Virus record (IMG/VR): IMGVR_UViG_3300035199_001057
Span: 1-64,000 of that record
DNA: 64,000 nucleotides
From: a virus
Direction: 5' to 3' (one strand)
A program made the position numbers and the translations under genes. Shown one piece after another: positions 14,601 through 64,000 of the stretch. Within the stretch, counting starts at the first letter, position 1. Every line of letters begins with the position of its first letter. The notes under the pieces are model-generated. The model saw nothing but the letters and a program-made list of their open reading frames with translations. It had not been told where the DNA came from and searched no databases.

Positions 14601-14753
14601 GTGTTTCATTCCAGTGTTTACGAAGGCGGTCTCGTTAATGATGTTTGTTCTAATCGACTTTTCTCCAAGGCCTTCGAGTCTCACATCGTTGGTGGGGGTT
14701 GTCGAAAGGTCGATTTTATCAAATCCATCAATAAGAGTGTATTTTTTTACCAT
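11667..14753 (-). CDS. Large virion protein with a fibronectin-like region
   Basis: A 1028-residue protein without a named family match. Residues ~840-925 resemble a fibronectin type III-like beta sandwich: a strand with YEIYRSHRK, then NVDYYYFARFVDIHGNIS and a closing strand before KLRIVKEE. Extracellular and virion proteins often use such domains for surface contact. The long N-terminal part is mixed alpha/beta and has no catalytic motif I can see. The C-terminal ~70 residues are polar and low in complexity. The next gene downstream is 73 bases away, and the start lies 8 bases after the 134-residue gene. A peripheral baseplate or fibre-attachment role is inferred from position only. Confidence 0.6.
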   Translation of the reverse strand: MVKKYTLIDGFDKIDLSTTPTNDVRLEGLGEKSIRTNIINETAFVNTGMKHAFHRKFWSTQRYSYKFLPDLFRFLTGRRFAATTAGSGKWHLMAPPAAVNNVETYRKLLIGRTPGPDFCTDLTKLAETINSNFEALGMNFSFENYFALSPKTSTFQTKSGETVLGVDHFDMTAYNSRVEVVKNLMAEFKKMNKISVNRLTAGAFEAWKVDTFDTFDVLPFDSLKLLSVDLGAHSEEMQGWLHAALFGAAPGQEKDPTKMELVWAVLQLMFFTYSVSKADFGQRRPYHPYFVTTLDAAQPKGLLNEHVMTGYVNVAPYYNCYREDHEEMPENVSSEWQLPSPYIYNGYKSFSGNYFRDLFTLGQEVDLEKSKVTVSQYFDIIKNSESVSPSEIQANLGTLLAPYGSTSPVPMNNPEFSTPERFRTIILNDENLMASTKTLKKVFPYGVEIDLGYSQPSQFLNVLKEQGETYFNMFTTMLANQSNNIAIANSNAHRFVMHREFEADLPLENQGAASSTAAFNSQFSLLDLQFFDVSQMLNINTVDEFYQHFGQYIDDKRNVNLSEAINASPSMGKALYYLGIQNLKTPLNKYLSDRALTMPEIYAGEGCHTEVIAYEIAKYKKSGKLRGDLGDRTPVQSIFIPNAFPQDSPLSYLDTQVFYGHDYVYEIFAHTLVVGATYKYGHSEAPHAYGMPPNSMISSPESKSDTVLNKYIEFDLPHPLDTHLIPYGIIVRAPYHNTLSLATPYEGQEITKVVDKPPLPPEVSFHPYEGSSNKVLILLNKNYGERLMVPNDKIFVEDILKVADYKIAQAPLNNPPGHILYRTENDLGTYEIYRSHRKPEKWSDFRDEATVKKIALDSTRQSGFNDSVIPNVDYYYFARFVDIHGNISNPTSIFKLRIVKEESFPPYMVLKPYSFPRRDLVTSIPFKKYLKISLSDALRSIVGDNADTAQVLYMRRDGGPVKKYKFRVTSKKTGKKIDINVDMANKIINKFNAQSPGEHPGEASSQTCADEAPNNPNFGNSSDELCLD

Positions 14754-14761
14754 TAGTTACC

Positions 14762-15166
14762 TTAATATCCCATAGGTTTGCCCGTTGGCTTTTTAGGAGC
14801 GCTCACGGGAGACAGGGCGGTGCCTGGTGTGGGCGTTGTTCCCGCCGTGCTGGTGCTTGTTGGCGTGCCTTTGGGCCCCCCAGTGGCATCAGCTGGGACG
14901 TCCGCATCGGAACCGGGGAAATAAGGTGCCTCGGCCGAAATCACATCCCCGGGTAGCCCGCCAACAACGGGTACTTCGTCCGGCGAGAAAGGCGCGGTCT
15001 CAAAAAGATTGGGATCCATGATAGGCGCGGTGCCAACAACAACGCCGGGCTTGTCTGGCATGCCGACAAGAGTCTTAATCTCCGCCGGGTTCGCCGGGAT
15101 CATTGCCTTGGTATAGCCCTGAAGAACAAGGTACACGTTAGTATAATAGTCTGTCATATATGCCAT
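14762..15166 (-). CDS. Small Pro/Thr/Gly-rich protein
   Basis: A 134-residue protein. Residues ~1-25 could form a short structured segment (YYTNVYLVLQGYTKAM). The rest is dominated by Pro, Gly, Ala, Thr and Ser, with a run such as TPTSTSTAGTTPTPGTALSP, so it is probably disordered or a flexible linker. The start ATG at 15166 has AAAGGGA upstream. It lies between two very large virion genes and is likely a virion component, but no function can be assigned. Confidence 0.5.
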   Translation of the reverse strand: MAYMTDYYTNVYLVLQGYTKAMIPANPAEIKTLVGMPDKPGVVVGTAPIMDPNLFETAPFSPDEVPVVGGLPGDVISAEAPYFPGSDADVPADATGGPKGTPTSTSTAGTTPTPGTALSPVSAPKKPTGKPMGY

Positions 15167-15203
15167 TTTGCATTCCCTTTATAAATAGTAACTACCGAAT
15201 CTT

Positions 15204-49733: not shown

Positions 49734-50468
49734 CTATCCTCCAATTTCGTTGAGTATGAATTTTTCCAGTTTAGAGATGCTGTAGCTCTCTGATTCTAGA
49801 TCGGTTGACACCACCAAATCCGCGGCGACAGGTTCGTCAAACGCATCGGAAATGCCGGTGAAATTGTGTACTTTGTTCGGGTCGCCATCGGGCAAGATGG
49901 CCCGGGCGTAAAGCCCTTTGGTGTCGCGTCGTTTAAGCTCTTCTACATTGCAATGAATATAAACTAATTTGGACTGGGGGGTTGACTGGCGCACGTGTTG
50001 GCGAGTGGTGTTATAAGGATTGATGGCTGACATGATACAGACCACGTTGTTGCGTCCTAAAACTTTTCCAACAAAGGAGAGTCTTTTAATGTTCTCTTCG
50101 CGATCTTTTCGCGAGAAGCCCAAGTCCTTGCAAAGGTTATCTCGATATTCATCCCCGTCGATCACTTCTACCTTGATGCCGCGCGATTTTAAACGTTGCG
50201 CGGCCGCGCGGGCTAACGTAGTCTTCCCGGCGCCGGACATCCCTGTCATTTGTATATACAATCCCTTTGTTTTCCCCCAGCTTATCTTATTCCATGTACG
50301 CTCGTGAAGTGTAAATAGTCCTAACATTAAGAGATGATAGGCCAATGCGACCAGACCTGTCTTTGTGAGCGAACCTGTGGCAGCATAAGTCAGTGCCGAG
50401 AGGATTATAAGACCGAGAAACTTCCATGTGAGCGCTTTCGCAAAACTTCTTTTAGCGGAATCAATCAA
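49734..50468 (-). CDS. cysC: Adenylylsulfate (APS) kinase with N-terminal DUF2061 membrane domain
   Basis: A 244-residue protein in two parts. Residues ~1-60 match the DUF2061 small membrane domain: basic SFAKALTWKF, hydrophobic segments, then LHERTWNKISWG. Residues ~68-244 are APS kinase (CysC), with P-loop GMSGAGKT (76-83), DGDEYRDNL and FSRKDREENI, and the later AINPY and lid region KGLYARA. The enzyme phosphorylates adenylylsulfate to PAPS, the sulfate donor. The start is a TTG at 50468 with GGAGG 7 bases upstream, overlapping the HAD stop; an upstream in-frame ATG at 50564 would overlap that gene by 104 bases. No ATP sulfurylase is seen, so APS must come from the host. A sulfotransferase lies 6 kb upstream. 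Confidence 0.85.
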   Translation of the reverse strand: MIDSAKRSFAKALTWKFLGLIILSALTYAATGSLTKTGLVALAYHLLMLGLFTLHERTWNKISWGKTKGLYIQMTGMSGAGKTTLARAAAQRLKSRGIKVEVIDGDEYRDNLCKDLGFSRKDREENIKRLSFVGKVLGRNNVVCIMSAINPYNTTRQHVRQSTPQSKLVYIHCNVEELKRRDTKGLYARAILPDGDPNKVHNFTGISDAFDEPVAADLVVSTDLESESYSISKLEKFILNEIGG

Positions 50469-50802
50469 AAAGGTCCTCCATTGTCTTGCCCCAATTGGTA
50501 AAATGGTAAGCGCGGTCGTCGATATAGACCTTCGCTGGTACCTTAGTGTTCGTAATCTCCGCAAAATAAGAGTCTAGATCGTATTTTTTCAGCCATTCTT
50601 CAATAACTGGGACGCTACGGCTGGAAAAGACGACGAGACGGTAGCCCTCTTCTTTGAGGCGCTTAATGGCGTCAACTGCGCCTTCCATGGGGGGGTCATA
50701 GGCGTTATCCATTCCTTGCCAGCGTTTCGAATATCGATGAATCACTCCATCAAAGTCAATCGCGATGGTATTTTTCTTTACCTCATCATCAATTTCTTTC
50801 AT
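50461..50802 (-). CDS. HAD-superfamily phosphatase
   Basis: A 113-residue small HAD hydrolase. Motif I is IAIDFDGVIH, with nucleophile Asp16 and Asp18; motif II is VVFSSR, with a Ser in the usual Ser/Thr place; a late acidic motif is VYIDDRAYHF. There is no cap domain. Short HAD proteins of this type occur widely in phages and nucleotide-sugar clusters, where they remove phosphate from sugars or nucleotides; the substrate here is unknown. The ATG at 50802 has a perfect AGGAGG, overlaps the dehydrogenase stop as ATGA, and the gene's own stop overlaps the APS kinase start. One possibility is removal of adenosine 3',5'-bisphosphate left by sulfotransfer, but no sequence evidence supports that. 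Confidence 0.75.
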   Translation of the reverse strand: MKEIDDEVKKNTIAIDFDGVIHRYSKRWQGMDNAYDPPMEGAVDAIKRLKEEGYRLVVFSSRSVPVIEEWLKKYDLDSYFAEITNTKVPAKVYIDDRAYHFTNWGKTMEDLFD

Positions 50803-52637: not shown

Positions 52638-53873
52638 TCATTCTCTTCCTATCACTTCAAAGGCAGGGCATGGAACAATAAATTTGCCCCCCTGGTTTAA
52701 AAACGCTGCCTCCCTTTCTACAAATTCTTTGATGAAATGCCAGGGCAACACTAATAGATAGTCCGGTGAGGCCTCTCTCATCTCTTTTTCTGAAATAATA
52801 GGAATATTAGTTCCTACCGTGTATTTGCCAAACTTGGCTGGGCTGCGCTCAGCGATGGCCGTAATATCATCAGGCGTGAGGCCATAGTACTGAAGAAGCG
52901 TGTTACCCTTTGTAGAGGCTCCGTAACCATACACAGTCTTACCTTTGGCTATTTCTCCACGAATAAAATCAACTGTTTGCTTTTTCATCTTTTCTAATTT
53001 AGTGTAAAATTCTTTCCACACTTCCGGCTTGGAAATGTCGGAATGCTCTTGCTCATAAGCGAGGATGGTATTGACTCGAAACTCACACACGTCGCGCAAT
53101 GGCGTGGTGCCAAATGATGTTTCTTTGGCAATAGTTTTCTGAAGGTAGACTCGGCATGAGCCGCCGTTTGTGTCATTTAAAGAGCAGTCGACAATTTTAA
53201 ATCCATGGGGTTCTACTAGCTTTTTCATACTGTTGAGTGAAAAATAGTACACATGTTCATGGCAAATATTGTCAAAGGCCATTTGCTTAACCATCAGAGG
53301 GGTATAAGAGAGTTGAACCACCCAAACACCATCATCTTCTAGAATATTGTAAACGTCTTCAATGAAAGGGTTGGGGTCATCCAAATCATAGAACATGGCA
53401 ATCGTTGTTACCACCTTACATTTTTTATCCCCATAGCCGCTTTTTTGGTACGAACTGTAAGAAAAGTAGTCTTGAACAACGCTATCTGCCACCTGAGAAG
53501 ATAATTCAACAAAGGAGTCTTCAACTGGGTCAATGCCGACTTTGATAAATTCATCCGGAATAAATCTAAACATTGTTCCATCATTACATGCGATGTCCAG
53601 CCAAACATCGTCTTTTTGATATTTGATGCGGCTGCTGACTTCTTCGGCGATGTTCTTCAACTGGTTCGTCATCGAAGCGTTGGTTCCAGATCGATACCAA
53701 TATTTACCGTACATTTTGTCGGGATCTACCACTTGTGTGAGGCGGGGAGCCCCGATTTTTTCATCCATTACCAAAGTGAGAGCGGCTTTTTCTTTGCCCT
53801 CATATTCCTTATTAATGTCCGTTAAAAAGTCTGATATAAAATGGCTTCCTAGATCAAGTAGATTCTCTGTCAT
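52638..53873 (-). CDS. NDP-hexose C-methyltransferase family protein
   Basis: A 411-residue protein of the sugar C-methyltransferase family (TylC3/NovU-like), which adds a methyl to C3 or C5 of a dTDP-keto-sugar. The layout is typical. An N-terminal domain ends in GKYWYRSGTN. The SAM motif is WLDIACNDGT (91-100). CHEHVYYFSL (~209-218) and NGGSCRVY are the catalytic-domain motifs, and the C-terminal domain has YGASTKGNTLL and PGT-like GTNIPI. The N-terminal domain usually binds zinc through four cysteines, yet the equivalent stretches here (TENLLDLGSH and LTLVMDEKIGAPRLTQV) have none. The ATG at 53873 has GGAGAA upstream. It fits with the 2,3-dehydratase and ketoreductase further upstream in making a branched dideoxysugar. 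Confidence 0.8.
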   Translation of the reverse strand: MTENLLDLGSHFISDFLTDINKEYEGKEKAALTLVMDEKIGAPRLTQVVDPDKMYGKYWYRSGTNASMTNQLKNIAEEVSSRIKYQKDDVWLDIACNDGTMFRFIPDEFIKVGIDPVEDSFVELSSQVADSVVQDYFSYSSYQKSGYGDKKCKVVTTIAMFYDLDDPNPFIEDVYNILEDDGVWVVQLSYTPLMVKQMAFDNICHEHVYYFSLNSMKKLVEPHGFKIVDCSLNDTNGGSCRVYLQKTIAKETSFGTTPLRDVCEFRVNTILAYEQEHSDISKPEVWKEFYTKLEKMKKQTVDFIRGEIAKGKTVYGYGASTKGNTLLQYYGLTPDDITAIAERSPAKFGKYTVGTNIPIISEKEMREASPDYLLVLPWHFIKEFVEREAAFLNQGGKFIVPCPAFEVIGRE

Positions 53874-53874
53874 C

Positions 53875-54519
53875 TTAGTTTTCTCCTTTTATATAGAAAT
53901 CATTTATTTTCCAGCGTGCATCCTTTATATACCCAAACGCATTCAAATAAGTCTCAATTTGACCATCGTCATAGTTATCCTCTATTACCAATAAAGAAAC
54001 ATTCCACCTTTTCAGGTTTAAGCCTTTTAAGACGTCTAGTTCTGTGCCCTCGGTGTCAATTGATATGAAATCAATGTTGGTTCCTATGTCGGCGTCTTCT
54101 AAAATAGAATCTAGCGTTCTTACCTCGACAGGGATCTCGTAGGTATCGTTTATAAGGCCGCGGCCTTCGTGGTCGGCAACTAAGCGTTGATCGGGTTCGA
54201 GTCCACTAATTGAAGACATTATATTGTTTCTACCAATATCGTAGACCGTAAACATTACTTCTGAGGCGTTCTCTTTGCCGCAAGCGTACTGTACGGCCTC
54301 CTTACGAGTCTCTTCAACTAGTTTATAGTACTCCGGGTTGGGCTCTATACACAGCGCACGCCACCCTTTTTTCTCAAAGTACAGCGTGTTCGAGCCCCGC
54401 GTTCCGTTTGCGGCCCCAACTTCGACGCAATTGCCTCTTTCTTTCCCATGAAAGTAAAGTTCTATCAGCACGTCCGTGCTAAATTGCCCATGATATCCTT
54501 TGATGGGTTCATAATTCAT
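53875..54519 (-). CDS. FkbM-family methyltransferase
   Basis: A 214-residue protein. The SAM-binding loop is NCVEVGAANGT (30-40). ALCIEPNPEYY is motif II, and FISIDTEGTELDVLKGLNL is the FkbM hallmark, with D-T-E-G and the following leucine-rich helix. It probably O-methylates a sugar hydroxyl. The gene starts at an ATG at 54519 directly after the preceding stop and runs into the C-methyltransferase with a one-base gap, so the two are co-translated. The acceptor is not identifiable. Confidence 0.8.
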   Translation of the reverse strand: MNYEPIKGYHGQFSTDVLIELYFHGKERGNCVEVGAANGTRGSNTLYFEKKGWRALCIEPNPEYYKLVEETRKEAVQYACGKENASEVMFTVYDIGRNNIMSSISGLEPDQRLVADHEGRGLINDTYEIPVEVRTLDSILEDADIGTNIDFISIDTEGTELDVLKGLNLKRWNVSLLVIEDNYDDGQIETYLNAFGYIKDARWKINDFYIKGEN

Positions 54520-55230
54520 TTAACTCTGTTCCTTGCGCTTTTTTATACATTCTAATATGAGGTCCATGTCTTCCATTTGAAATGGACCGGAACAGCCATA
54601 CGGGCGGCGACAGTCCCAACGGGGAACGGGCACTCCTTTGCGATATATATTCGCAGCTTCAAAGACATTCTCGGGATGATCTGACGAAATAATGGTCGCC
54701 CCGTCCTTCATAGACTCTGCTATATTGGACAATTCAAAGTCCCAAGCCGAGAATCCCGGCTTCAAATATCTTTGAAAGTATTTCTTCCGCCAAATAGAGG
54801 GATGAAGCGTTGTGCGATAAGTGGCAGTCTGGTTAAGACATACTAGGCCCTCTTTATACGGGTCCGCGTTTCCATTTAAATGGGTATCCAAAACCGCCTT
54901 ATCGGCGCGTCCGTGCTTTATTTCCTCTTCCAAGAGAGCCATTCTTTCTAGATTTACGTAATTCATTAGCATCATATCCTCGACGGTTACAATGAAATAT
55001 TCGTCCTCTAAAGACTCAATAAAGGGGATGAGAGGGTCAGTCCACACAAGGCCGAAATCTTCCTGCTTGCCCAAAGAATGAAAAGTACAGTTAGAAGGCA
55101 AATCCGGCGCTGAGTCGGGGTCAAACCCTAAAAAAACAATCTCTTGGCCCGGCCAATGTTTGTTGAACAAATGGCTATAGGGCTCTAGCAAAAAAGCGTA
55201 TTGATTAGAGGTAGTTACCAAAACTTTCAT
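54520..55230 (-). CDS. Probable glycosyltransferase-like protein
   Basis: A 236-residue protein starting at the ATG at 55230, which overlaps the GMD stop as TAATG; an in-frame start at 55245 is less likely. The N-terminus (MKVLVTTSNQYAFLLEPYS) is a beta-strand-turn typical of nucleotide-sugar-binding folds. VTVEDMMLMN near residue 85 may serve as the acidic donor-binding site, and a W-D-F-E-L-S segment near residue 165 lies where many GT-A enzymes have their acceptor helix. I could not place it in a named family. Context among GMD, GT8-like and methyltransferase genes suggests glycan assembly. Confidence 0.5.
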   Translation of the reverse strand: MKVLVTTSNQYAFLLEPYSHLFNKHWPGQEIVFLGFDPDSAPDLPSNCTFHSLGKQEDFGLVWTDPLIPFIESLEDEYFIVTVEDMMLMNYVNLERMALLEEEIKHGRADKAVLDTHLNGNADPYKEGLVCLNQTATYRTTLHPSIWRKKYFQRYLKPGFSAWDFELSNIAESMKDGATIISSDHPENVFEAANIYRKGVPVPRWDCRRPYGCSGPFQMEDMDLILECIKKRKEQS

Positions 55231-56195
55231 TATGAATTTTCCCAAATTTTAATGTCATTCAGGACCATTTTGCGTACCATCTCTTCAAAAGAAACTTTGG
55301 GCGCCCATCCTAGGGCTTTCTGAGCCTTGGCCGCACTGCCCACCAAAACATCTACCTCGGCCGGGCGCATGTGTCGCGGGTCTTGTTGAACATACTGTTG
55401 CCAATTTTCTATGCCAACGCAGTGAAAAGCCGCTTTTAGAAAATCTCTTACAGAGTGGGTTTCGCCGGTCGCGATCACATAATCATCCGGTTTAGGCTGC
55501 TGCAGCATCATCCACATCGCTTCGACGTAATCGGGCGCATAGCCCCAGTCGCGCTTCGCATCTACGTTTCCTAAAGAGATATGGTCTGCTATGCCTAAAT
55601 GAATTTTGGCGACCCCATCGGAAATCTTTCGCGTGACGAACTCTATACCGCGGCGCTCTGATTCATGGTTAAACAAAATTCCGCTGCAGGCGTAGACACC
55701 GTAAGACTCTCTATAATTTTTAGTTATCCAGTGGCCATAAACTTTAGCGACGCCATAAGGACTACGCGGGTAAAATCGAGTAGTTTCAGTCTGGGGCGTC
55801 TCCGTGACTTTTCCAAACATTTCGGAAGTTGAAGCCTGATAGAATCGAACTGGTTTATCGTAGGCGCGCACAGCTTCGAGCATTCGCAAGACACCTAATG
55901 CGTCAACGTCGCCAGTAGCTTCTGGGGAGTTCCAGCTTTCCCCTACAAAGGACATGGCGCCGAGATTATAAATTTCATCGGGTTGTGCCATTTGGATACA
56001 CCGCAATAAAGAGTTTTGGTCAGTCAAATCCCCGTTAATAAAGGTTATTTTCCCCTCTAGGTGCTTTGTATTAACTCTGTTTTTGGTGGAGGAGCGACGC
56101 TCCATACCATAAATCTTATAATCCTTGGTTAATAAAAAATCAGCCAAGTAGCTTCCGTCTTGGCCATTAACGCCTGTAATCAATGCTGTTTTCAA
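55230..56195 (-). CDS. gmd: GDP-mannose 4,6-dehydratase
   Basis: A 321-residue short-chain dehydrogenase/reductase that converts GDP-mannose to GDP-4-keto-6-deoxymannose. The N-terminus GVNGQDGSYLADFLL is diagnostic of GMD. The catalytic residues are Thr123, Ser124 and Glu125 in ASTSEMFG, and Tyr147 and Lys151 in YGVAK. NHESERRG and RDWGYAPDYVEAMWMML are also typical. Length is close to bacterial GMD (~345-370), slightly short. The start is a TTG at 56195 with GGGGAGG upstream. The product normally feeds GDP-fucose, GDP-rhamnose, colitose or perosamine routes, but no reductase or aminotransferase for this keto-sugar was seen here. Confidence 0.92.
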   Translation of the reverse strand: MKTALITGVNGQDGSYLADFLLTKDYKIYGMERRSSTKNRVNTKHLEGKITFINGDLTDQNSLLRCIQMAQPDEIYNLGAMSFVGESWNSPEATGDVDALGVLRMLEAVRAYDKPVRFYQASTSEMFGKVTETPQTETTRFYPRSPYGVAKVYGHWITKNYRESYGVYACSGILFNHESERRGIEFVTRKISDGVAKIHLGIADHISLGNVDAKRDWGYAPDYVEAMWMMLQQPKPDDYVIATGETHSVRDFLKAAFHCVGIENWQQYVQQDPRHMRPAEVDVLVGSAAKAQKALGWAPKVSFEEMVRKMVLNDIKIWENS

Positions 56196-56223
56196 GTTGC
56201 CTCCCCAGATGTTTTATAGACCA

Positions 56224-56925
56224 TTATCCGTATACTCTTTGATAGTCCAATTTAGCCTGGTCTAGTTTGTTGTCGATACCTTGGGCCTTGGCGTCTTCAA
56301 ACAAGCCGACGCCTGCGTAGTGTATAATATGGGAATCAAACCGGCTTGGCCCTCCATTCCAGTCTTGCGAAAACATGGTCATGTGATTAAATTTGTAGCC
56401 TAAGTCGTTGATCTCAAAGCCATTCTTTTTAATTAGATACCCTATATGTACATCATCGCTGCCCCAGTCAGTCCAATATTCCCCGTTGATTTTCGTATAA
56501 ATCTCTCGATGTTCTTTGGATGTAACGAAAACGCCAGTATTTATATATTCCCGATTCCAGCCAATAGCGCCAAATTTTTGCTGCGCAAGATAGATGCTCT
56601 GCAGGCGCGCATGCTGGCGAGGGCCTTTATCCTCGCAACACGTGCCAATTTCATCGGGGTCTACAACTTCAAAAAGATTAGGGCAGTTTGGCATAATCAA
56701 GGTATCCGTATCTATATGTAAAATTCTATCATATTCCTCATGAAGCTCATAATGCTTCATGATACGATAATGCCAGCGGCCGTCGCCAACATCGCAATCA
56801 GTAACATAATCAATCACCTGAAAATCGGCGCCAACTTTCGCGGCGTACTCTTTTAGGAGAGGATGAGTTAAGGCAACCCAATCGGGAATTCGATTGTCTG
56901 CGCGCGTAGTTATTAATAATTTCAT
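56224..56925 (-). CDS. Glycosyltransferase, GT8-like
   Basis: A 233-residue protein with a GT-A fold. ILHIDTDTLIMPN (68-80) holds the metal- and nucleotide-binding DxD (Asp72-Thr73-Asp74), INTGVFVTS follows at the acceptor site, and IIHYAG near residue 208 corresponds to the HxxGxxKPW-type end motif of GT8 enzymes. The family transfers galactose, glucose or related sugars from UDP donors with retention. It would add a sugar to a host or virion glycan. The start ATG overlaps the sulfotransferase-FkbM stop as ATGA. The substrate is unknown. Confidence 0.75.
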   Translation of the reverse strand: MKLLITTRADNRIPDWVALTHPLLKEYAAKVGADFQVIDYVTDCDVGDGRWHYRIMKHYELHEEYDRILHIDTDTLIMPNCPNLFEVVDPDEIGTCCEDKGPRQHARLQSIYLAQQKFGAIGWNREYINTGVFVTSKEHREIYTKINGEYWTDWGSDDVHIGYLIKKNGFEINDLGYKFNHMTMFSQDWNGGPSRFDSHIIHYAGVGLFEDAKAQGIDNKLDQAKLDYQRVYG

Positions 56926-58361
56926 TTTTTAATCTTTTCTTGAGGAATACAAATATATTCTCCCCACTTGGTTAAAGAAGGTACGCGCTGGCCGAAATCA
57001 TTGTAAACATTATAGCCTAGCCTATCAAACGTTTCAAAATCAAAACCTCCATCTTCGGGCTTGACAAAACCGGGATAGCCTTCATATGATATATCCATTC
57101 CTGCATGGAAACCTATTTGCCATATAGGTCTTACGTTTTCAAGAATATTTTTCATTCCAAAAAGGGCTAAAGTTTCCATGCCCTCGATGTCCAACTTCAC
57201 AAAATCAGGAGGTTTTATATTGTTTTCTTTTACATAATCATCAAAAACAACATATGAAATTTTTCTGGCCACGGGATCATCATCAGTACAATCATTAAAT
57301 TTAGTCGTTACTACTTTTTTCTCGTTATTCAAAGCACATAAATATAATTCAATATTATACGGTTCACAGTTTTTCTTGGCCCGGTCGAAATTATCCGGAA
57401 AACCCTCAAAAGCAGATACTTCCATTCCTTCTAAGGCCATCGTGATGCCAAAAGTTCCAATATAAGCGCCGATATCGTACACAACGCTTCCGGGTTTAAT
57501 TAACCTTAGTATTTTATCAAAATTGTGATCGGCTCTTCTATATAAATTTCCTTGAAGAATATATCTATCAATGTTATTGCCGGATGCAAAAAGATCATAA
57601 AATTTAATGTCATGACCCTTATAGTTAACTGTCGCATCCTTTTTTTGAATTGAAGGAAGAGTGGCGTGGTTATATCCAAAAAACTCTGAATAGGGTCTTA
57701 GGTCTTCGAAAAGCGCGGCTACATCCACTTTACATTTGCGCCAGTCGGCAAAAAACTCATCATAAATTTGATATTTTCGTTTATATAAACCTACTTGGCT
57801 TTTATCAAGCGTCTTATAGCGCCACCCCTTTTGAACAGTGCGATATCTTCCTATAAAATTATTCATATTTTCGTTGTAAGGTATTTCACAAAATTGGCAC
57901 ACCTCTTTAACTGTGTCATGAAATTCTAGGATTATATCCTCCATTTTAATTAACTTTATTCTTTCCGGATAATTTTCCGTAATATGGACATAAACTTGTT
58001 TCATCCACTCAATATCTTCTAAGCAGCCCTGGTGTGTGGCGTCGTCTGCTAATCCGTAAGATGGGCCTTCATGGCCGGGTTGACCGCGGTAGATTTTAGA
58101 CAAAGCCATATCTCTAGGGTCTCGTATTGTCCACAAGATTTTCATTTTCGGATTGTTGTCTAAAAAGGCACTAACCTGTTCTACATTATCGATATATACT
58201 GTATCACACTTGCTTAAATAATTCTCATAAACCAATTGACCTCTACGTACCACTTGTTTATCTTCAGCCATAGGAGTAGCTTCAAGTTCCGGAGAGCCAC
58301 GTAAAATTTCTAATAACATATTGGTGCCAGTTCGGCCACAACTTAAAACTAAAACACTCAT
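56922..58361 (-). CDS. Bifunctional sulfotransferase-FkbM methyltransferase
   Basis: A 479-residue fusion. Residues ~1-225 are a PAPS-dependent sulfotransferase: VLSCGRTGTNMLLEIL (5-20) is the 5'-phosphosulfate-binding loop and ILWTIRDPRDMALS (75-88) binds the 3'-phosphate through Arg and Ser. The remaining ~250 residues are an FkbM methyltransferase: VVYDIGAYIGTFG (~293-305) binds SAM and FVKLDIEGMETLALFGM (~385-405) is the family hallmark. It could transfer sulfate and methyl to neighbouring hydroxyls of the same glycan. GGGGG lies 7 bases upstream of the ATG at 58361. PAPS would be supplied by the APS kinase of this island. The acceptor (sugar or tyrosine) is not shown by sequence. Confidence 0.8.
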   Translation of the reverse strand: MSVLVLSCGRTGTNMLLEILRGSPELEATPMAEDKQVVRRGQLVYENYLSKCDTVYIDNVEQVSAFLDNNPKMKILWTIRDPRDMALSKIYRGQPGHEGPSYGLADDATHQGCLEDIEWMKQVYVHITENYPERIKLIKMEDIILEFHDTVKEVCQFCEIPYNENMNNFIGRYRTVQKGWRYKTLDKSQVGLYKRKYQIYDEFFADWRKCKVDVAALFEDLRPYSEFFGYNHATLPSIQKKDATVNYKGHDIKFYDLFASGNNIDRYILQGNLYRRADHNFDKILRLIKPGSVVYDIGAYIGTFGITMALEGMEVSAFEGFPDNFDRAKKNCEPYNIELYLCALNNEKKVVTTKFNDCTDDDPVARKISYVVFDDYVKENNIKPPDFVKLDIEGMETLALFGMKNILENVRPIWQIGFHAGMDISYEGYPGFVKPEDGGFDFETFDRLGYNVYNDFGQRVPSLTKWGEYICIPQEKIKK

Positions 58362-58363
58362 TT

Positions 58364-59086
58364 TTAATCCCCCTTATACACTGCCCAATTCGTCTCATGA
58401 TACGAACCCATGGTACCCGCATCAGACCACTTACCCTCTAATATATCAAATGAACAAATGTCCTCTCCGATGAAAAAATTGTTTACAGTAGAGATTTCAT
58501 ATTCGCCACGATCGGAGCGCTTTATTTTATCGATAACATCAAACACTTTATTACTGTAAAAATATATGCCTATACATGCTAAATTTGTTTGCGGCTTAAG
58601 TGGCTTTTCGTCAACACGAATTAGTCTATCTTTTTTAAACACTCCTACTCCATATCTACGCGGGTCCGCAACGCGTTTAAAAAATAATCTACATTCTTCA
58701 TTACTAATTTTAAAGCTTGTTACATAAGATTTTAAACTATCTTTAAAGATATTATCACCCAAAATTACTGCACACGTGTCATCACCAACAAAATCTCTAC
58801 AAAGTTGTAATGCGCCAGCAATCCCATCAGGTTCATCTTGTACTCTATAAGTAAAGGAGCATCCATATTCTTTGCCGCTGCCGAGGAGAGTCATGATATT
58901 TCCGCAATGTTCTACTCCAGTGATTATCATTATATCTTCAATTCCAGCTTCAACAAGCTTGCGTATTGGATGGTTAATCATAGGCTCTCCACCTAAAGGT
59001 AGAAGATGCTTGTTTGTTACCTTTGTAAGAGGATACAATCTGGTACCCTTCCCTCCAGCTAAAATAATTCCTTTAATTTTTCTCAT
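58364..59086 (-). CDS. rmlA: Glucose-1-phosphate thymidylyltransferase-type nucleotidyltransferase
   Basis: A 240-residue enzyme that would activate glucose-1-phosphate with dTTP to dTDP-glucose. The N-terminal loop IILAGGKGTRLYPLTKVTNKH, read as GGKGTRLYP (11-19) plus the following Lys, is diagnostic. VILGDNIF provides the metal-binding Asp, DEKPLKPQ the sugar-binding Glu-Lys, and WSDAGTM the second metal Asp. It is ~50 residues shorter than bacterial RmlA (~290) and lacks the allosteric C-terminal helices, as in some archaeal and phage forms. It overlaps the 3' end of rmlB by 14 bases. Only a weak ribosome site is seen, so coupling to rmlB is likely. Confidence 0.88.
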   Translation of the reverse strand: MRKIKGIILAGGKGTRLYPLTKVTNKHLLPLGGEPMINHPIRKLVEAGIEDIMIITGVEHCGNIMTLLGSGKEYGCSFTYRVQDEPDGIAGALQLCRDFVGDDTCAVILGDNIFKDSLKSYVTSFKISNEECRLFFKRVADPRRYGVGVFKKDRLIRVDEKPLKPQTNLACIGIYFYSNKVFDVIDKIKRSDRGEYEISTVNNFFIGEDICSFDILEGKWSDAGTMGSYHETNWAVYKGD

Positions 59087-60026
59087 AATACCATTCTATT
59101 GTTTTTTTAATCCCCTCGGAAAAAGTACTTTTAGGCTCCCATGCTAGCTCTAATAAAATTTTTGTATTATCAATAGCATATCTAAAATCATGCCCCAGGC
59201 GATCTGTGACATACTCAATATATTCATCCGGATGGACATCCATTAGGCCGCATATGGTTGTTATTACATCAATATTTCTTTTTTCGCAATTCGAACCAAT
59301 ACAATAAGTTTCTCCTAAATTTCCATTAATAAAGACATCCCACACACCTTCACAGTGATCTTTTACATAAATCCAATCTCTTACATTTACACCTTTACCA
59401 TAAAGAGGGATCTTCTCTTTGCTTAAAATGGAACTTATAACAGTGGGGATAAATTTTTCTTTGTGCTGCCGCGGCCCATAGTTATTAGAGCAATTGGAAA
59501 TCGTAATAGGCAGCTTAAATGTATGAAAATATGATTTAACGAGAAAATCAGAAGAAGCTTTAGAGGCTGAGTAGGGATTATGTGGGTTATATGGAGTTGT
59601 TTCGCTAAATTTGCCCGTTGGTCCCAGATCTCCATATACCTCATCCGTGGAAACATGATGAAATCTAATCACATCAGAAGCACGTGCGACCTTAAGCAGG
59701 TTGAACGTTCCTACAATATTGCTTTGTATAAAAACATCAGGATCTGTAATTGAATTATCTACATGACTCTCTGCCGCTAAATGAACCACATGAGTTATCT
59801 TGTGTCTTGTAAAAACATCAGCTAACTCGTCTAAAGAACATAAATTTACTTTTTCAAAAAAATATTTCTCATCATTCGAAAAGTCTTCTGTATTCTTAAG
59901 GTTGCCGGCATAAGTAAGGGCATCTAAATTTACTACTCTAGACACAGCGTTTCTTTTGGTTTGCAATACCATTTCTATAAAATTCGAACCAATAAACCCG
60001 GATCCGCCTGTTACCAATAAGTTCAA
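59073..60026 (-). CDS. rmlB: dTDP-glucose 4,6-dehydratase
   Basis: A 317-residue enzyme converting dTDP-glucose to dTDP-4-keto-6-deoxyglucose, the branch point for deoxysugars. TGGSGFIGSNF (6-16) binds NAD; HVSTDEVYGD gives the catalytic Thr127, Asp128 and Glu129; YSASKAS gives Tyr152 and Lys156. ISNCSNNYGPRQ and the GKGVNVRDWIYV stretch are diagnostic of RmlB. The start is a TTG at 60026 with GAGG 5 bases upstream. It follows the ketoreductase after 54 bases and overlaps rmlA. rmlC and rmlD are not in the window, so the product is not obviously rhamnose. Confidence 0.92.
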   Translation of the reverse strand: MNLLVTGGSGFIGSNFIEMVLQTKRNAVSRVVNLDALTYAGNLKNTEDFSNDEKYFFEKVNLCSLDELADVFTRHKITHVVHLAAESHVDNSITDPDVFIQSNIVGTFNLLKVARASDVIRFHHVSTDEVYGDLGPTGKFSETTPYNPHNPYSASKASSDFLVKSYFHTFKLPITISNCSNNYGPRQHKEKFIPTVISSILSKEKIPLYGKGVNVRDWIYVKDHCEGVWDVFINGNLGETYCIGSNCEKRNIDVITTICGLMDVHPDEYIEYVTDRLGHDFRYAIDNTKILLELAWEPKSTFSEGIKKTIEWYYEKN

Positions 60027-60080
60027 TATAACCTCGCCTTACAGTTTTTTATAATACTTTATATTGCTTAAATCTTTAAA

Positions 60081-61016
60081 TTAATTTTTGAGCTTTTCAA
60101 TAAAAGCAATTCTTTCTAGAACATCAGAACCATATGATATTTTTTTATCAATGCGTTCAGAAAACACGTTTAACATGTTAACAAAATGATCTTCTTTCGC
60201 CGTCGGGTGCTTTACACAATTTCCATTAGACCAGACTTCAATAGGTAGTTCACATTGAGAAGGGCGCGTAAATACTCTACTTGCCTTTAAAATGCCCTTG
60301 GTGCCCCACGCTATTATTTCATTACGATACGCATGCCCCAAGCCATAAGAAATATTTGCTATTGAGTTGGGGTACTTAAATTGTATATATCCTCTTTCGT
60401 CCACGCCGGTTCTTTCATCATAAAAATTACAATGTGATATATCAAGGTGGCTAGTTCCCAAAATTGAGAATACAAAACTAAGTGGATATATCAAACAGTC
60501 CAACATTGCGCCGCCGCCTAATTCTTTAAAATAGCGAATATTTTTTTTATCATCAAAATGCGGAAAACCAAAATGAGCTTCAAGACATTTTATTTTTCCA
60601 ACATGTGTTGATAAGGTTTTTATTTGTTTTTGTATTGGATGGAACTCGTACATTAGCGCCTCCATACAACATAATTTCTTTTCTAGCGCTAGTTGAAAAA
60701 GCTCATTAGCTTGAGAGTGAGTTTCCGTAAAGGTTTTTTCCATCAAAAGGTGCTTTCCCGATTCAAGTACTTTCTTGCCCCACTCATAATGCAGCCCTAC
60801 CGGTAAAGAAACATATATAGCCTCTACATCGCTACTTAACAACTCTTCATAAGAAAAAGCTGCCGTGTAATTTTCTTGCGCTTGTGCGGTTGCCTTTGTG
60901 GCGTCTCTCGAAGCTATGCCAGAAAGTACAAAACTATTACATTCTTTAATAGCCGGAATTACAGATCTTTTAGCAATTGAGGAACACCCCAGTATACCAA
61001 TTTTTTTGTTTTGCAT
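60081..61016 (-). CDS. Gfo/Idh/MocA oxidoreductase, probable NDP-hexose 3-ketoreductase
   Basis: A 311-residue NAD(P)-dependent oxidoreductase. IGILGCSSIAKRSVIPAI (6-23) is the cofactor-binding loop, LMEKTFTE carries the family's Glu93-Lys94 pair, and YFKELGGGAMLDCLIYP is the active-site helix typical of the family. Members near a 2,3-dehydratase (KijD10 type) reduce C3 of the diketo-sugar formed by that enzyme, giving a 2,6-dideoxy-4-keto sugar. It begins one base after the stop of the 2,3-dehydratase, a strong argument for this substrate. The local DNA is very AT-rich. Assignment to C3 reduction is by context. Confidence 0.78.
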   Translation of the reverse strand: MQNKKIGILGCSSIAKRSVIPAIKECNSFVLSGIASRDATKATAQAQENYTAAFSYEELLSSDVEAIYVSLPVGLHYEWGKKVLESGKHLLMEKTFTETHSQANELFQLALEKKLCCMEALMYEFHPIQKQIKTLSTHVGKIKCLEAHFGFPHFDDKKNIRYFKELGGGAMLDCLIYPLSFVFSILGTSHLDISHCNFYDERTGVDERGYIQFKYPNSIANISYGLGHAYRNEIIAWGTKGILKASRVFTRPSQCELPIEVWSNGNCVKHPTAKEDHFVNMLNVFSERIDKKISYGSDVLERIAFIEKLKN

Positions 61017-61017
61017 T

Positions 61018-62421
61018 CTAAGCTTCTTTATAATACGACGCCAAAGTTAACAAAGTTCGTGATTCTATGTTAACACTACATTCGTAAGAAGTCATTTTTT
61101 TTAATTGGTAGAGGGTAATCCATTTATGCCGATCAGACACGCTAACACTAGAATCTTTATCCAATTTTATGAGCATATATCGATTCTTTTGCTCCATAAA
61201 ACGGCCGCCCTCTTCTGATTGAAAGCAGTCATAAAAGAGGTGACTTTTTTCATCTTTAACCCCAAATTTGCTCAACTCCTTTTTCAAGGAAAATGTGTTG
61301 GAATCCAATGAATGAAAAGATGGGCCCAATTCAGCCCCATTCCAACTAAAATCTTCTTCAACTAGTTGAACAAGGACATGAAGAACATTGTTGAACTCTT
61401 TCAATAAAAAACCATACACTTTTGGTATGTTATCTCTAACTATTGGCTGACACCATGAAGATACTTCACGTGAACCAATAGAAGCTTTAACACCTACAAG
61501 CTCAAAATTTTTGTTTTCCTCGTGACATAGGCTTTGATCGGACATTTTCCAACCATGCTTGTATAATTTCGCCAGTGGTACCAGTTTGTGTTCAATTCGC
61601 TTATTATCTTTTGCTGCTAGCAGCCATTCCCGAATGAAGCTAAGTGAATGTAGCGCATCGTGATCTGAGAGAGAAGAAAATAAAAGCTGTAATTCTAAAG
61701 AGGTAAACTTAGTCCTAATGCCTTGAGCGCCCTCGATTAACTCATCGCGCGAAATTGATCTGTCAAAAAAATCAATTGTTGCCAACACAGAACGCGTGTC
61801 CATATTAATACAATGTTCTTTGGATAGCATGTGTCTGATATCATTTAAGGTTAACCAAGCAAACTTGTTGTCTATTATAGTTATCTCATCATCACTGGCG
61901 TGTACATTATCATTGGCCTTTTTATAAAACTTATACCCGTGCTCCGACTGATATCCTCGTGATTTTATTTTTGGAGAGCCGTCTAAAAAGCTTTCGATAT
62001 AAGCTACGCTTTTTCCCTTATGTGCTCCAGTATAATTGCTTTTAGTGGCTTGAACGGTTGGGGAATACTGAACGCTATCTAAATTACCGGGTTCGATTTT
62101 CGCCTGTAAAAGAAGCTCTATCTGCCCCTCATTAATGCGCGAAACAATTCCTAGTATTCCTTGTTCTGGTTGATCGATTACTGGTTGATATCGCGTAATC
62201 CCTAATTCTTTATCAACAGCTCTTGCCCCTCGGATGCTAAAAAACTTTCCACTTTGGTGTGAAATAGCCTCATTGGGGAAATAATTCCATTTTTCCATTT
62301 CATCAAAATCGATTCTTAAAATGTTAACCTGCAGGGAGCGCCGGTAACGTTCTAAAGCAGAAAATAAGTTGTCTTCATTCACATCACTCAAATAACTTTT
62401 TAAAAATTGATCAAAGATCAA
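61018..62421 (-). CDS. NDP-hexose 2,3-dehydratase
   Basis: A 467-residue enzyme of the NDP-hexose 2,3-dehydratase family (TylX3/EvaA/GraOrf27 type), which removes the C2 hydroxyl from dTDP-4-keto-6-deoxyglucose. The protein is an internal duplication, as expected. The first half has KFFSIRGARAV and LLLQAKIEPGN, then SPTVQATKSNY (120-130), and ends with FAWLTLNDIRHML. The second half has the equivalent VLVQLVEED, GPSFHS and HKWITLYQLKKM. The start is a TTG at 62421 with GGAG upstream and matches the family's usual N-terminus. In the second half the QAKxEPGN motif is degenerate, which is normal for this family. It lies between the B12 radical SAM gene and the ketoreductase. Confidence 0.9.
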   Translation of the reverse strand: MIFDQFLKSYLSDVNEDNLFSALERYRRSLQVNILRIDFDEMEKWNYFPNEAISHQSGKFFSIRGARAVDKELGITRYQPVIDQPEQGILGIVSRINEGQIELLLQAKIEPGNLDSVQYSPTVQATKSNYTGAHKGKSVAYIESFLDGSPKIKSRGYQSEHGYKFYKKANDNVHASDDEITIIDNKFAWLTLNDIRHMLSKEHCINMDTRSVLATIDFFDRSISRDELIEGAQGIRTKFTSLELQLLFSSLSDHDALHSLSFIREWLLAAKDNKRIEHKLVPLAKLYKHGWKMSDQSLCHEENKNFELVGVKASIGSREVSSWCQPIVRDNIPKVYGFLLKEFNNVLHVLVQLVEEDFSWNGAELGPSFHSLDSNTFSLKKELSKFGVKDEKSHLFYDCFQSEEGGRFMEQKNRYMLIKLDKDSSVSVSDRHKWITLYQLKKMTSYECSVNIESRTLLTLASYYKEA

Positions 62422-62425: not shown

Positions 62426-63772
62426 TTATTCTCCGGCGCTTTGAATTGATTTTATATTGGCACCAATTGGAGTAGACGTCGATTGTTTCTCTAGCTCTCT
62501 CATATCTCCAAAACCACCGACCTGTGAAGAATCTTCCTGCCGCTCACACAGAAGTAAATCATATTTAGTTTTAAAATAAGCCTGTTGCGATTTCAGTTCA
62601 ATATTGGTGAAATGCTCCGTATACCAAAAGTTGTTGGAGTACTCGTCCGCAAGCTCCCAGTCCACATCTTTGTGGGCCACTGGGTCGTAAAAATTAGTTC
62701 CCGGATAAGGGCACAAAATGGTGAACCCTACGACATCCGGCTTAATTTCATCGATAAGTTGCTCTGTTAACAGGAGATCTTCGCGAGTCTCGTTGGGCAT
62801 TCCAAATAGGAAAAAGCCGCGGCGCTCGACACCATATTTTTTGGCCCATTCAAAAACATTACGTATAGTTTTAGTTTTAAGACCTTTGCCGATTTGCTTT
62901 AATATTCTATCGCTTCCACTTTCGCATCCAATGTTCACCTGATGACACTGAGATTTTTTAAGCCACTTGAACATCTCCTCGCTGGCGAAGCTCGCGTGAA
63001 TCAAGCACTCCCATTCTGTGGTGATTCCTCTTTTGATCTTCTCCTTACAAAACTCGATTACAAAGTTAGCAGAAATATCGAAAGTGGCGTCAACAAATTT
63101 AAAATAATTCAAGTCCAATTGCTCGATTACGTGTTCGATTTCATCGCACATTTCACTGACATCTCGTGACCTAATAGGATTGTTCCTCTTGTGAAATCGA
63201 CCCGAGATAATTCTTTCCGCGCAAAAAGCGCAATTGACCGGGCAAACTCGGTTACATTGAAAAGATGCGATCCGCTTGCCATTCATTGACTCACACAGAT
63301 CTACTGTGCGGTGGTTTTTAATGACTTCTCGATCAGGCCATGGCAATTCTTGCATTGGGGGTTTTGTTCCCGGGATAATGGGATCCGTGAAATTTCCACT
63401 TACGAGTTGAAAGAAAGATTCTTCGCCTTCACCTAGTATAACATGGTCAATAGCGTCATGAGAAATACACTCTTCTGGAAGCGCCGTGGGGTGATAACCT
63501 CCAACCACTGTGCGTGTTTGGGGGCTTTTTTCCTTGATCATTTGCGCCAGACGCAATGCGTGAGGCCATGCGGGAGAGGTACATGAAAATCCAACAACGT
63601 GAGCGTCCGCGCATGCTTCAATAATAGTTTCGTCCGTATCAAAATTACCTTGATAACACTGGAGGTCGAGATCTCCCACATAATGTTTTTTAAGATAAGA
63701 GGCTATAAAGCCTAGGCCAATTGGCTCCCATATATTCTCATAATAAGGTTGTACTAATATTACTTTTTTCAT
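62426..63772 (-). CDS. B12-binding radical SAM enzyme
   Basis: A 448-residue enzyme. Residues ~1-140 look like a cobalamin-binding domain with GFSCTSPAWPHALRLAQMIK and VVGGYHPTALPEE. The radical SAM core starts with the iron-sulfur motif CPVNCAFC (Cys177, Cys181, Cys184). GCESGSDRIL and FLFGMPNET are typical SAM- and core-domain segments. Such class B enzymes methylate unreactive carbons or phosphorus, or rearrange carbon skeletons, in antibiotic, hopanoid and sugar pathways. The ATG overlaps the upstream stop as ATGA. Location next to the deoxysugar genes suggests a sugar or lipid carrier substrate. The last ~45 residues are low in complexity. Confidence 0.8.
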   Translation of the reverse strand: MKKVILVQPYYENIWEPIGLGFIASYLKKHYVGDLDLQCYQGNFDTDETIIEACADAHVVGFSCTSPAWPHALRLAQMIKEKSPQTRTVVGGYHPTALPEECISHDAIDHVILGEGEESFFQLVSGNFTDPIIPGTKPPMQELPWPDREVIKNHRTVDLCESMNGKRIASFQCNRVCPVNCAFCAERIISGRFHKRNNPIRSRDVSEMCDEIEHVIEQLDLNYFKFVDATFDISANFVIEFCKEKIKRGITTEWECLIHASFASEEMFKWLKKSQCHQVNIGCESGSDRILKQIGKGLKTKTIRNVFEWAKKYGVERRGFFLFGMPNETREDLLLTEQLIDEIKPDVVGFTILCPYPGTNFYDPVAHKDVDWELADEYSNNFWYTEHFTNIELKSQQAYFKTKYDLLLCERQEDSSQVGGFGDMRELEKQSTSTPIGANIKSIQSAGE

Positions 63773-64000
63773 CTGTTTGCCTCGGTATACACTTTATACT
63801 TAGAGAGATCTTGATATTCTATAGCCAAATCTTCATTATCGTCTTTTATGCCCAGCATCAATGTGGCGCCCTTTGCTGCTATCTCAGGAAGCATATAATA
63901 ATTCCAACCAAGCATGTCAAATTTTTCTTCTAAATGGCCGAGACCTTCGCGGCGGCCAAAATATGAGGCTCTTATGAACCATTCATAAGCATCCTTATTA
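63769..64000 (-). CDS. Partial coding region, C-terminal 76 residues
   Basis: The frame is open from the window edge and ends with TGA at 63769, overlapping the radical SAM start as ATGA. The visible part reads AYEWFIRASYFGRREGLGHL, then E-E-K-F-D-M-L-G-W-N-Y-Y-M-L-P-E-I-A-A-K-G-A-T, ending KYKVYTEANR. It is soluble and helical with several aromatic residues. I cannot assign it to a family. Being coupled to the radical SAM gene, it probably belongs to the glycan island. The N-terminal portion lies outside the window. Confidence 0.55.
   Translation of the reverse strand, partial: NKDAYEWFIRASYFGRREGLGHLEEKFDMLGWNYYMLPEIAAKGATLMLGIKDDNEDLAIEYQDLSKYKVYTEANR

What the first reader, a model, noticed from the sequence alone, without database searches (positions are those of the whole stretch)
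52638..62421. A phage-encoded dTDP-2,6-dideoxyhexose (probably C-methylated) pathway
RmlA, RmlB, an NDP-hexose 2,3-dehydratase, a Gfo/Idh/MocA ketoreductase and a sugar C-methyltransferase lie on one strand of a T4-like phage region. RmlA and RmlB are common in phages, but a 2,3-dehydratase is a marker of 2,6-dideoxysugars (mycarose, digitoxose, vancosamine types), known mainly from antibiotic clusters. The dehydratase and ketoreductase are one base apart. The enzyme order matches the chemistry: activate, 4,6-dehydrate, 2,3-dehydrate, 3-reduce, C-methylate. No 4-ketoreductase or epimerase is seen; one may lie beyond the window.
Basis: partly seen in the sequence, partly recalled or inferred. 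Interest (0 to 1): 0.88.

Follow-up and report, generated by a model that had tools for sequence, protein, structure and literature searches.

The report
Phage pathway for antibiotic-type dideoxy sugars
A T4-like phage genome carries an intact two-gene module (sugar 2,3-dehydratase plus 3-ketoreductase), known almost only from antibiotic producers, inserted into a nucleotide-sugar operon, so the phage can probably make a 2-deoxy sugar of the kind found on antibiotics, most likely an amino sugar for decorating its own or its host's surface glycans.

Summary
The core observation holds. Window 61018-62421 is a full two-domain NDP-hexose 2,3-dehydratase (Pfam 323 bits; closest solved structure EvaA) with both EvaA catalytic glutamates. 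One base away lies a KijD10-like 3-ketoreductase, followed by RmlB and a short RmlA. The contig is phage, and related phages share the gene order. None of 50,697 deposited phage records matches the dehydratase, but at least 22 other IMG/VR contigs do.

Two parts of the reading change. First, the C-methyltransferase belongs to a second pathway. [quoted passage not shown] in the cultured cyanophage DSL-LC02 it sits between Gmd and GDP-fucose synthase. Second, the gene beyond the window edge is a half-length DegT aminotransferase. Relatives carry DegT, radical-SAM, RmlB and RmlA with nothing between; here the dehydratase-ketoreductase pair is a clean 2.4-kb insertion. Other phages pair such modules with a full 4-aminotransferase and an N-acetyltransferase.

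Best reading: a dTDP-2,6-dideoxy intermediate, probably aminated to a 2,4,6-trideoxy-4-amino hexose, plus a separate GDP-linked C-methyl 6-deoxyhexose. Sugar identity, acceptor and activity are unproven.

The parts
61018..62421 (-). NDP-hexose 2,3-dehydratase, two tandem Hexose_dehydrat domains, 467 aa, TTG start; E110 and E160 correspond to EvaA catalytic E139 and E190
   Evidence: PF03559 323 bits; EvaA 4j7g E=7.8e-59; Glu pair conserved (EvaA mutants cited in PMC8987622); purifying selection dN/dS 0.056 among close homologues in other phages
60081..61016 (-). Gfo/Idh/MocA sugar 3-ketoreductase (KijD10-like), one base after the dehydratase
   Evidence: PF01408/PF22725; KijD10 3rbv E=5.4e-34; 61% identical in L005 beside its dehydratase
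60081..62421 (-). 2.4-kb inserted module (dehydratase + ketoreductase) between the radical SAM gene and RmlB, absent from the matching place in L057 and L060
   Evidence: blastn: window 63936-62499 and 60025-58470 match L057 10106-11540 and 11548-13103 (72% each), leaving 7 bp in L057 against ~2.47 kb here (gene order)
59073..60026 (-). RmlB, dTDP-glucose 4,6-dehydratase
   Evidence: TIGR01181 430.8 bits, cut-off 365.1
58364..59086 (-). RmlA, short-form glucose-1-phosphate thymidylyltransferase (240 aa)
   Evidence: PDB 3hl3 E=4.1e-76; TIGR01207 210 bits, under its 360.65 cut-off
62426..63772 (-). B12-binding-domain radical SAM protein, overlapping the DegT gene; role unknown
   Evidence: PF02310 + PF04055; weak relative AprD4 6fd2; conserved after the half-length DegT in 13 of 80 viral loci
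63769..64000 (-). 3' end of a half-length (211 aa) DegT/DnrJ/EryC1 aminotransferase-like gene; its start lies at 64404, beyond the window (L003:769-1404)
   Evidence: PF01041 67 bits in two pieces; the family keeps K123, D98 and S117 in L057 numbering; fold search best match GDP-perosamine synthase E=6e-10
55230..56195 (-). [quoted passage not shown]
   Evidence: TIGR01472 433.2 bits, cut-off 415
52638..53873 (-). Sugar C-methyltransferase (TylC3/KijD1 family without the zinc domain), assigned here to the GDP pathway
   Evidence: PF08484 + PF13489, no PF08421; TylC3 4rv9 E=3.7e-41; linked to Gmd in L056-L060 and DSL-LC02
56922..58361 (-). Sulfotransferase fused to FkbM methyltransferase
   Evidence: PF00685 and PF05050
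56224..56925 (-). Probable glycosyltransferase (no Pfam match; annotation by eye), conserved beside this cluster in relatives
   Evidence: 63% identical in L005; no Pfam family
53875..54519 (-). FkbM methyltransferase of the Gmd to C-methyltransferase block
   Evidence: PF05050 85 bits; same order in L056-L060
49734..50564 (-). APS kinase (PAPS supply for the sulfotransferase)
   Evidence: PF01583 148.7 bits
32262..34472 (-). Two baseplate wedge genes (T4 gp6-like and gp25-like): phage context
   Evidence: phrog_10646/219 and phrog_261/43

Best explanation
A T4-like phage carries two separate nucleotide-sugar pathways in one glycan gene block. Pathway 1 is dTDP-linked. RmlA makes dTDP-glucose and RmlB makes dTDP-4-keto-6-deoxyglucose. 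The EvaA-type 2,3-dehydratase removes the C2 hydroxyl to give the 3,4-diketo-2,6-dideoxy sugar, and the KijD10-type reductase reduces C3 to give dTDP-4-keto-2,6-dideoxyhexose. The half-length DegT enzyme in the same operon most likely aminates C4 to give a dTDP-4-amino-2,4,6-trideoxyhexose. The dehydratase-ketoreductase pair is a two-gene module inserted into an existing DegT, radical SAM, RmlB, RmlA cassette, which it switches from a 6-deoxy to a 2,6-dideoxy product. Pathway 2 is GDP-linked: Gmd makes GDP-4-keto-6-deoxymannose and the C-methyltransferase adds a C-methyl group, probably at C3 (virenose-like). The phage's glycosyltransferases, sulfotransferase and FkbM methyltransferases then build a decorated glycan on the virion or on the infected host. 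Shown: gene identities, conserved catalytic residues, synteny, presence/absence of the module at one site, and purifying selection on homologues in other phages. Inferred: substrates, the C4 amination, the direction of the insertion, the acceptor and the benefit.
For: Dehydratase. Ketoreductase. RmlA/RmlB. The same adjacent dehydratase-Gfo/Idh pair occurs in Streptomyces operons. Phage status: baseplate, gp46/47-like, RuvC, primase and late sigma genes; the same block between the same phage genes in L005; terminase in G002, G152, G153, G160 and G168. Module insertion. Independent gain: L110, close to the window by DegT 79% and radical SAM 81%, has a different, single-domain dehydratase with its own ketoreductase. 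Amination: phage group B has dehydratase, ketoreductase, a full DegT whose best solved relative is the C4 aminotransferase DesI (2po3; perosamine synthase next) and a PglD/VioB-like N-acetyltransferase. Half-length DegT genes sit near PglD-like genes in several phages, including the cultured immuto phage. Selection: dN/dS 0.056 for close dehydratase pairs in phage group B. C-methyltransferase with Gmd; GC3 0.28-0.35 for DegT and for dehydratase through sulfotransferase, against 0.43-0.48 for Gmd through C-methyltransferase.
Against: No activity was tested. The DegT protein lacks the C-terminal half of a normal DegT aminotransferase, and the model of its family (made on the L057 copy) is only moderate (mean pLDDT 70.6), so amination is uncertain; in most viral loci its neighbours are unidentified. 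Two other viral loci place a C-methyltransferase near a 2,3-dehydratase: L085/L087, where Gmd is also near, and L092, where it is adjacent. RmlA scores under its NCBIfam equivalog cut-off. The radical SAM step is unexplained. No acceptor is identified. dN/dS could not be estimated for the window's own dehydratase because dS is saturated.
Confidence: 0.6

Rival explanations
1. One reading: one dTDP pathway in which the C-methyltransferase methylates C3 of dTDP-4-keto-2,6-dideoxyhexose, giving a mycarose/axenose-type sugar after a host 4-ketoreductase.
For: Best solved relative of the methyltransferase is TylC3 of mycarose. L085/L087 and L092 carry both genes in one neighbourhood.
Against: In the five closest relatives the methyltransferase sits in a Gmd, unknown, FkbM, C-methyltransferase block and no 2,3-dehydratase is found in their records. 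DSL-LC02 has Gmd, methyltransferase, GDP-fucose synthase. PF08484 is absent from G002 and G152-G155, all with a 2,3-dehydratase. GC content differs between the blocks.
Confidence: 0.13
2. A plain 2,6-dideoxyhexose without amination: a host RmlD/RmlC-type enzyme finishes the sugar, and the half-length DegT is inactive or serves another sugar.
For: DegT is half length. It accompanies RmlA/RmlB in relatives without the dehydratase and Gmd in L056, so it is not tied to the dideoxy branch. Host rhamnose enzymes are common (established knowledge).
Against: Half-length DegT genes are numerous in viral contigs (489 pattern-matched stretches; 196-232 aa in 80 of 80) and keep the PLP lysine and aspartate in the six aligned. 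Group B phages pair the same chemistry with a full aminotransferase and an N-acetyltransferase.
Confidence: 0.24
3. Host-derived cargo without function, or a host island misassigned to a virus.
For: The block's GC is lower than the window average (0.35-0.38 against 0.453). Bacterial homologues are mostly actinobacterial antibiotic genes.
Against: Phage genes on the same contig, collinear relatives, strong purifying selection on homologues in other phages, intact catalytic residues.
Confidence: 0.03
4. The sugar modifies phage DNA (a base-glycosylation system) rather than a surface glycan.
For: T4-type phages glycosylate modified cytosine (established knowledge).
Against: The block is rich in sulfotransferase, FkbM, heptose-type and other glycosyltransferase genes, typical of surface glycans; no DNA-base hydroxymethylase was seen among the proteins scanned, though not all were.
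Confidence: 0.05

Closest known systems
EvaA (Amycolatopsis orientalis, chloroeremomycin) and TylX3/SpnO/Gra27-type NDP-hexose 2,3-dehydratases
   Same: Same Pfam family, two tandem domains, both pocket-A catalytic glutamates, full-length match
   Different: In a lytic-type phage; at most about 36% identical to bacterial members found here; on its own long branch with L005
KijD10 C-3 ketoreductase (dTDP-L-digitoxose, kijanimicin)
   Same: Best solved match; lysine and tyrosine aligned to the KijD10 active-site residues; directly after the dehydratase as in Streptomyces operons
   Different: Phage gene in an amino-sugar type cassette; activity untested
Forosamine pathway SpnO-SpnN-SpnR (spinosyn)
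   Same: 2,3-dehydratase, 3-ketoreductase and a DegT 4-aminotransferase in combination (recalled; SpnO cited in PMC8987622)
   Different: No SpnQ-type 3-dehydratase or N-methyltransferase seen; DegT is half length in the window phage
GDP-branch C-methyl sugars: virenose (Coxiella, PMC3539893) and the Gmd, C-methyltransferase, GDP-fucose synthase block of Synechococcus phage DSL-LC02
   Same: Gmd with a TylC3-family methyltransferase close by (virenose proposal)
   Different: No GDP-fucose synthase or GMER seen in the window record
Cyanophage and marine T4-like nucleotide-sugar genes (P-SSM2, S-SKS1)
   Same: Phage-encoded Gmd and sugar genes in T4-like genomes
   Different: None of 50,697 phage records matches the window's or group B's 2,3-dehydratase

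Membership tests
NDP-hexose 2,3-dehydratase (EvaA/TylX3) | Two Hexose_dehydrat (PF03559) domains | tested here: met
   Two domains, 323.1 bits
NDP-hexose 2,3-dehydratase (EvaA/TylX3) | Catalytic glutamates of pocket A (EvaA E139, E190) | tested here: met
   E110 and E160 (residues from PMC8987622)
NDP-hexose 2,3-dehydratase (EvaA/TylX3) | Makes the 3,4-diketo-2,6-dideoxy sugar | not testable with these tools
   Needs enzyme assay
KijD10-type 3-ketoreductase | Gfo/Idh/MocA fold with KijD10 as closest solved relative | tested here: met
   PF01408, PF22725; 3rbv 121 bits, next-best different protein 96 bits
KijD10-type 3-ketoreductase | Active-site Lys and Tyr (K102, Y186; recalled numbering) | tested here: met
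   K94 and Y177 aligned at a constant offset; residue roles from memory
dTDP-glucose 4,6-dehydratase RmlB | TIGR01181 above cut-off | tested here: met
   430.8 against 365.1
RmlA thymidylyltransferase | TIGR01207 above cut-off | tested here: not met
   210 against 360.65; short form without the C-terminal part, yet best PDB match is a thymidylyltransferase, so RmlA-like, nucleotide specificity unproven
TylC3/KijD1 sugar 3-C-methyltransferase | PF08484 C-terminal domain and SAM domain | tested here: met
   152.8 and 42.5 bits; 4rv9
TylC3/KijD1 sugar 3-C-methyltransferase | N-terminal zinc domain PF08421 | tested here: not met
   No match in the window protein; present in L092
C-methylated dTDP-2,6-dideoxy pathway | C-methyltransferase inherited together with the 2,3-dehydratase | tested here: not met
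   Separate in 17 of 17 other records compared, some of them fragments; exceptions L085/L087 and L092
DegT/DnrJ/EryC1 sugar aminotransferase | Full-length family match (about 360 positions) | tested here: not met
   211 aa, two partial stretches, 67.2 bits
DegT/DnrJ/EryC1 sugar aminotransferase | PLP Schiff-base Lys and pyridine-binding Asp | tested here: met
   K123 and D98 invariant in six viral copies
T4-like phage (not a host island) | Phage hallmark genes on the same contig and conserved synteny in other phages | tested here: met
   Baseplate wedge, gp46/47-like, RuvC, primase, late sigma; collinear L005. No terminase in the 89-kb record, which may be a fragment

The most novel reading that the evidence does not exclude
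Single-domain phage 2,3-dehydratases (L032, L089, L092, L093, L110) keep both catalytic glutamates. In the domain tree they form their own clade on the branch between the N-terminal and C-terminal halves of two-domain enzymes. If the root lies on that branch, phages preserve the form from before the internal duplication that produced EvaA-type enzymes, and phages are a reservoir of these pathways rather than recent borrowers from antibiotic producers.
Probability: 0.2. Interest if true: 0.85.

Novelty: new variant of a known kind. Interest (0 to 1): 0.67.

Why it matters
2,3-dehydratases are the committed step to the 2-deoxy sugars of macrolides, glycopeptides and anthracyclines and are known mainly from antibiotic producers. 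Finding them intact in several phage lineages (two-domain with ketoreductase, two-domain with a 4-aminotransferase and N-acetyltransferase, single-domain with aminotransferase or C-methyltransferase) suggests that phages build unusual deoxy sugars. It points to glycan chemistry aimed at hiding virions or changing host receptors, and it offers a new pool of enzymes for glycodiversification. The two-gene module, present or absent at the same place in close relatives, shows how a phage could switch sugar chemistry in one step, and it gives clear assays.

Tried and rejected
Rejected: a host island (phage hallmarks and synteny). Rejected: gene order following chemistry (actual order differs). Rejected as the main reading: C-methylation of the dideoxy sugar (linkage to Gmd). 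Searched for an RmlC epimerase or further Epimerase-family reductase in the record: none. AlphaFold of the single-domain dehydratase failed (pLDDT 38.6) and was not used. The genome-contig scan found only Kibdelosporangium, so the bacterial sampling of the tree is thin: Actinomycetota plus Serratia and Hoeflea plasmids. The phage copies as one clade are not rejected (p-AU 0.142) but not shown. A viral scan with RmlA gave nothing. Literature searches found no description of a phage 2,3-dehydratase, but '2,3-dehydratase' itself cannot be searched and the library is incomplete. The ARAGORN tmRNA call at 14574-15207 was not followed up. Host unknown; no host prediction was possible.
Full report
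What is there. The 467-aa protein is a two-domain NDP-hexose 2,3-dehydratase (PF03559, 323 bits), closest in the PDB to EvaA (E=7.8e-59). Its E110 and E160 align with EvaA E139 and E190, whose mutation abolishes activity (review PMC8987622), and all phage copies compared keep both. The next gene, one base away, has KijD10, a sugar 3-ketoreductase, as best solved relative. RmlB passes its NCBIfam cut-off. RmlA is a short form, under the RmlA cut-off but with a glucose-1-phosphate thymidylyltransferase as best solved relative.

A GDP-mannose 4,6-dehydratase (55230-56195) passes its cut-off. The window is the first 64 kb of an 89,130-bp virus record. Just beyond its edge lies a 211-aa DegT-family gene whose 3' end is in the window; it overlaps a B12-domain radical SAM gene (62426-63772), which ends a few bases before the dehydratase start. 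Upstream are heptose-type and other sugar genes (transaldolase, aldolase, PfkB kinase, an RpiB-cytidylyltransferase fusion, glycosyltransferases).

Phage context. The contig has baseplate wedge, gp46/47-like, RuvC-like, primase and late sigma genes. L005, from a 185-kb IMG/VR contig with a terminase, has the DegT, dehydratase (57%), ketoreductase (61%), RmlA (67%) block between the same flanking genes. A host island is excluded.

How rare it is. tblastn found no relative in 50,697 phage records with either the window copy or a group B copy, while the same query finds 85 plasmids, the listed ones at 36% identity or less, nearly all from Streptomyces and other Actinomycetota. IMG/VR pattern scans gave 21 contigs, and L110 adds one; several are near-duplicates, probably the same phage in different samples, and these scans are lower bounds.

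Three phage forms. (A) Window and L005: two-domain dehydratase, ketoreductase, half-length DegT. (B) L021-L031 and the related L086: two-domain dehydratase, ketoreductase, full DegT (best solved relative the 4-aminotransferase DesI, 2po3; perosamine synthase next) and, in L023-L027, L031 and L086, a hexapeptide N-acetyltransferase (PglD/VioB-like in L026); in L023, L024 and L026 the block lies between tail tube and topoisomerase II genes, in contigs up to 254 kb. (C) L032, L089/L091, L092, L093/L094, L110: single-domain dehydratases. L092 joins one to a zinc-domain 3-C-methyltransferase and a DegT, an EvaA/EvaB/EvaC-like trio. A 405-kb record (L087; L085 carries the same locus) has DegT, an RmlD-like protein, dehydratase, ketoreductase, C-methyltransferase and Gmd within 11 kb.

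Module insertion. In L057/L058 and L060, close relatives of the window phage, the half-length DegT and radical SAM genes are followed directly by RmlB and RmlA. At the DNA level the window and L057 match at 72% on both sides of the dehydratase-ketoreductase pair, with 7 bp in L057 where the window has about 2.47 kb. L110, another close relative (DegT 79%, radical SAM 81%), instead has a single-domain dehydratase (45% to L032) with a distant ketoreductase (31%) at another position. The same phage lineage therefore holds two different dehydratase-ketoreductase pairs. Direction (gain here or loss there) is not proven.

Two pathways, not one. The C-methyltransferase lies in a Gmd, unknown, FkbM, methyltransferase block in L056-L060 (71-86% identity) and near a Gmd homologue in most more distant relatives. 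No 2,3-dehydratase is found in 12 such records; the same search does find it in G000 and G002. The cultured phage DSL-LC02 has Gmd, methyltransferase, GDP-fucose synthase, the GDP branch proposed for virenose (PMC3539893). PF08484 is absent from five records with a dehydratase. GC3 is 0.28-0.35 for DegT and for dehydratase through sulfotransferase, against 0.43-0.48 for Gmd through C-methyltransferase. L085/L087 and L092 are exceptions, so the C-methyl-dideoxy reading keeps a small probability.

Amination. The half-length DegT belongs to a large viral family: 489 stretches matched in IMG/VR and the best 80 all encode 196-232 aa. PLP-binding Lys and Asp are invariant in the six aligned. The AlphaFold model of the L057 copy (pLDDT 70.6) matches GDP-perosamine synthase best. 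It sits near PglD-like acetyltransferase genes in over a dozen contigs and in the cultured immuto phage, and the relative L056 carries a formyltransferase-domain gene. C4 amination is therefore the most likely next step, but the protein lacks half of the normal fold and this is inference.

Selection and ancestry. Close pairs in phage group B show dN/dS of 0.056 for the dehydratase. The window and L005 copies form a 100/100 clade on a long branch; group B is another. In a tree of separate domains, N halves, C halves and single-domain enzymes each form one supported group (96/90, 99/95, 100/99), with the singles on the branch between N and C halves. Without an outgroup this could mean a pre-duplication form or loss of the C half.

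Function. The glycan genes, including an APS kinase (49734-50564) and sulfotransferase-FkbM proteins, point to a sulfated, methylated surface glycan. Whether it is on the virion or on the host is unknown, and no activity has been measured.

Noticed in passing
L032:9238-9993, L089:7938-8705, L092:7995-8723, L093:7827-8606, L110:1334-2116: Single-domain 2,3-dehydratases with both catalytic glutamates, forming their own clade between the N and C halves of two-domain enzymes.
   Followed up: partly
L003:769-1404 and 80 viral loci L103-L182: A widespread phage family of half-length DegT aminotransferase-like proteins (196-232 aa), 489 stretches matched in IMG/VR, also in cultured Flavobacterium phage immuto.
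   Followed up: partly
window 62426-63772: B12-domain radical SAM protein following the half-length DegT in 13 of 80 viral loci; weak relative of AprD4 diol-dehydratase; role unknown.
   Followed up: partly
L092:6866-9860: Adjacent zinc-domain 3-C-methyltransferase, single-domain 2,3-dehydratase and DegT aminotransferase, resembling the vancosamine EvaC/EvaA/EvaB set, in a 13-kb viral contig.
   Followed up: partly
window 49734-50564 and 56922-58361: APS kinase with a DUF2061 domain, and a sulfotransferase fused to an FkbM methyltransferase, in the same glycan block: phage-encoded sulfation.
   Followed up: no
L003:6179-7138: Fusion of an RpiB-like sugar isomerase with a cytidylyltransferase-like domain, next to a PfkB kinase, class II aldolase and transaldolase; heptose-type pathway.
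   Followed up: no
window 20110-30384 and 34579-44253: Two giant reading frames of 3,424 and 3,224 aa; the first holds concanavalin-A-like lectin domains (Laminin_G_3), possibly fibre or adhesin proteins.
   Followed up: no
window 14574-15207: ARAGORN reports a tmRNA with an implausibly long tag on the strand opposite to large reading frames; probably a false call.
   Followed up: no
L087 (405-kb virus record): DegT, RmlD-like protein, 2,3-dehydratase, ketoreductase, C-methyltransferase and Gmd within 11 kb of a jumbo record with a terminase.
   Followed up: partly
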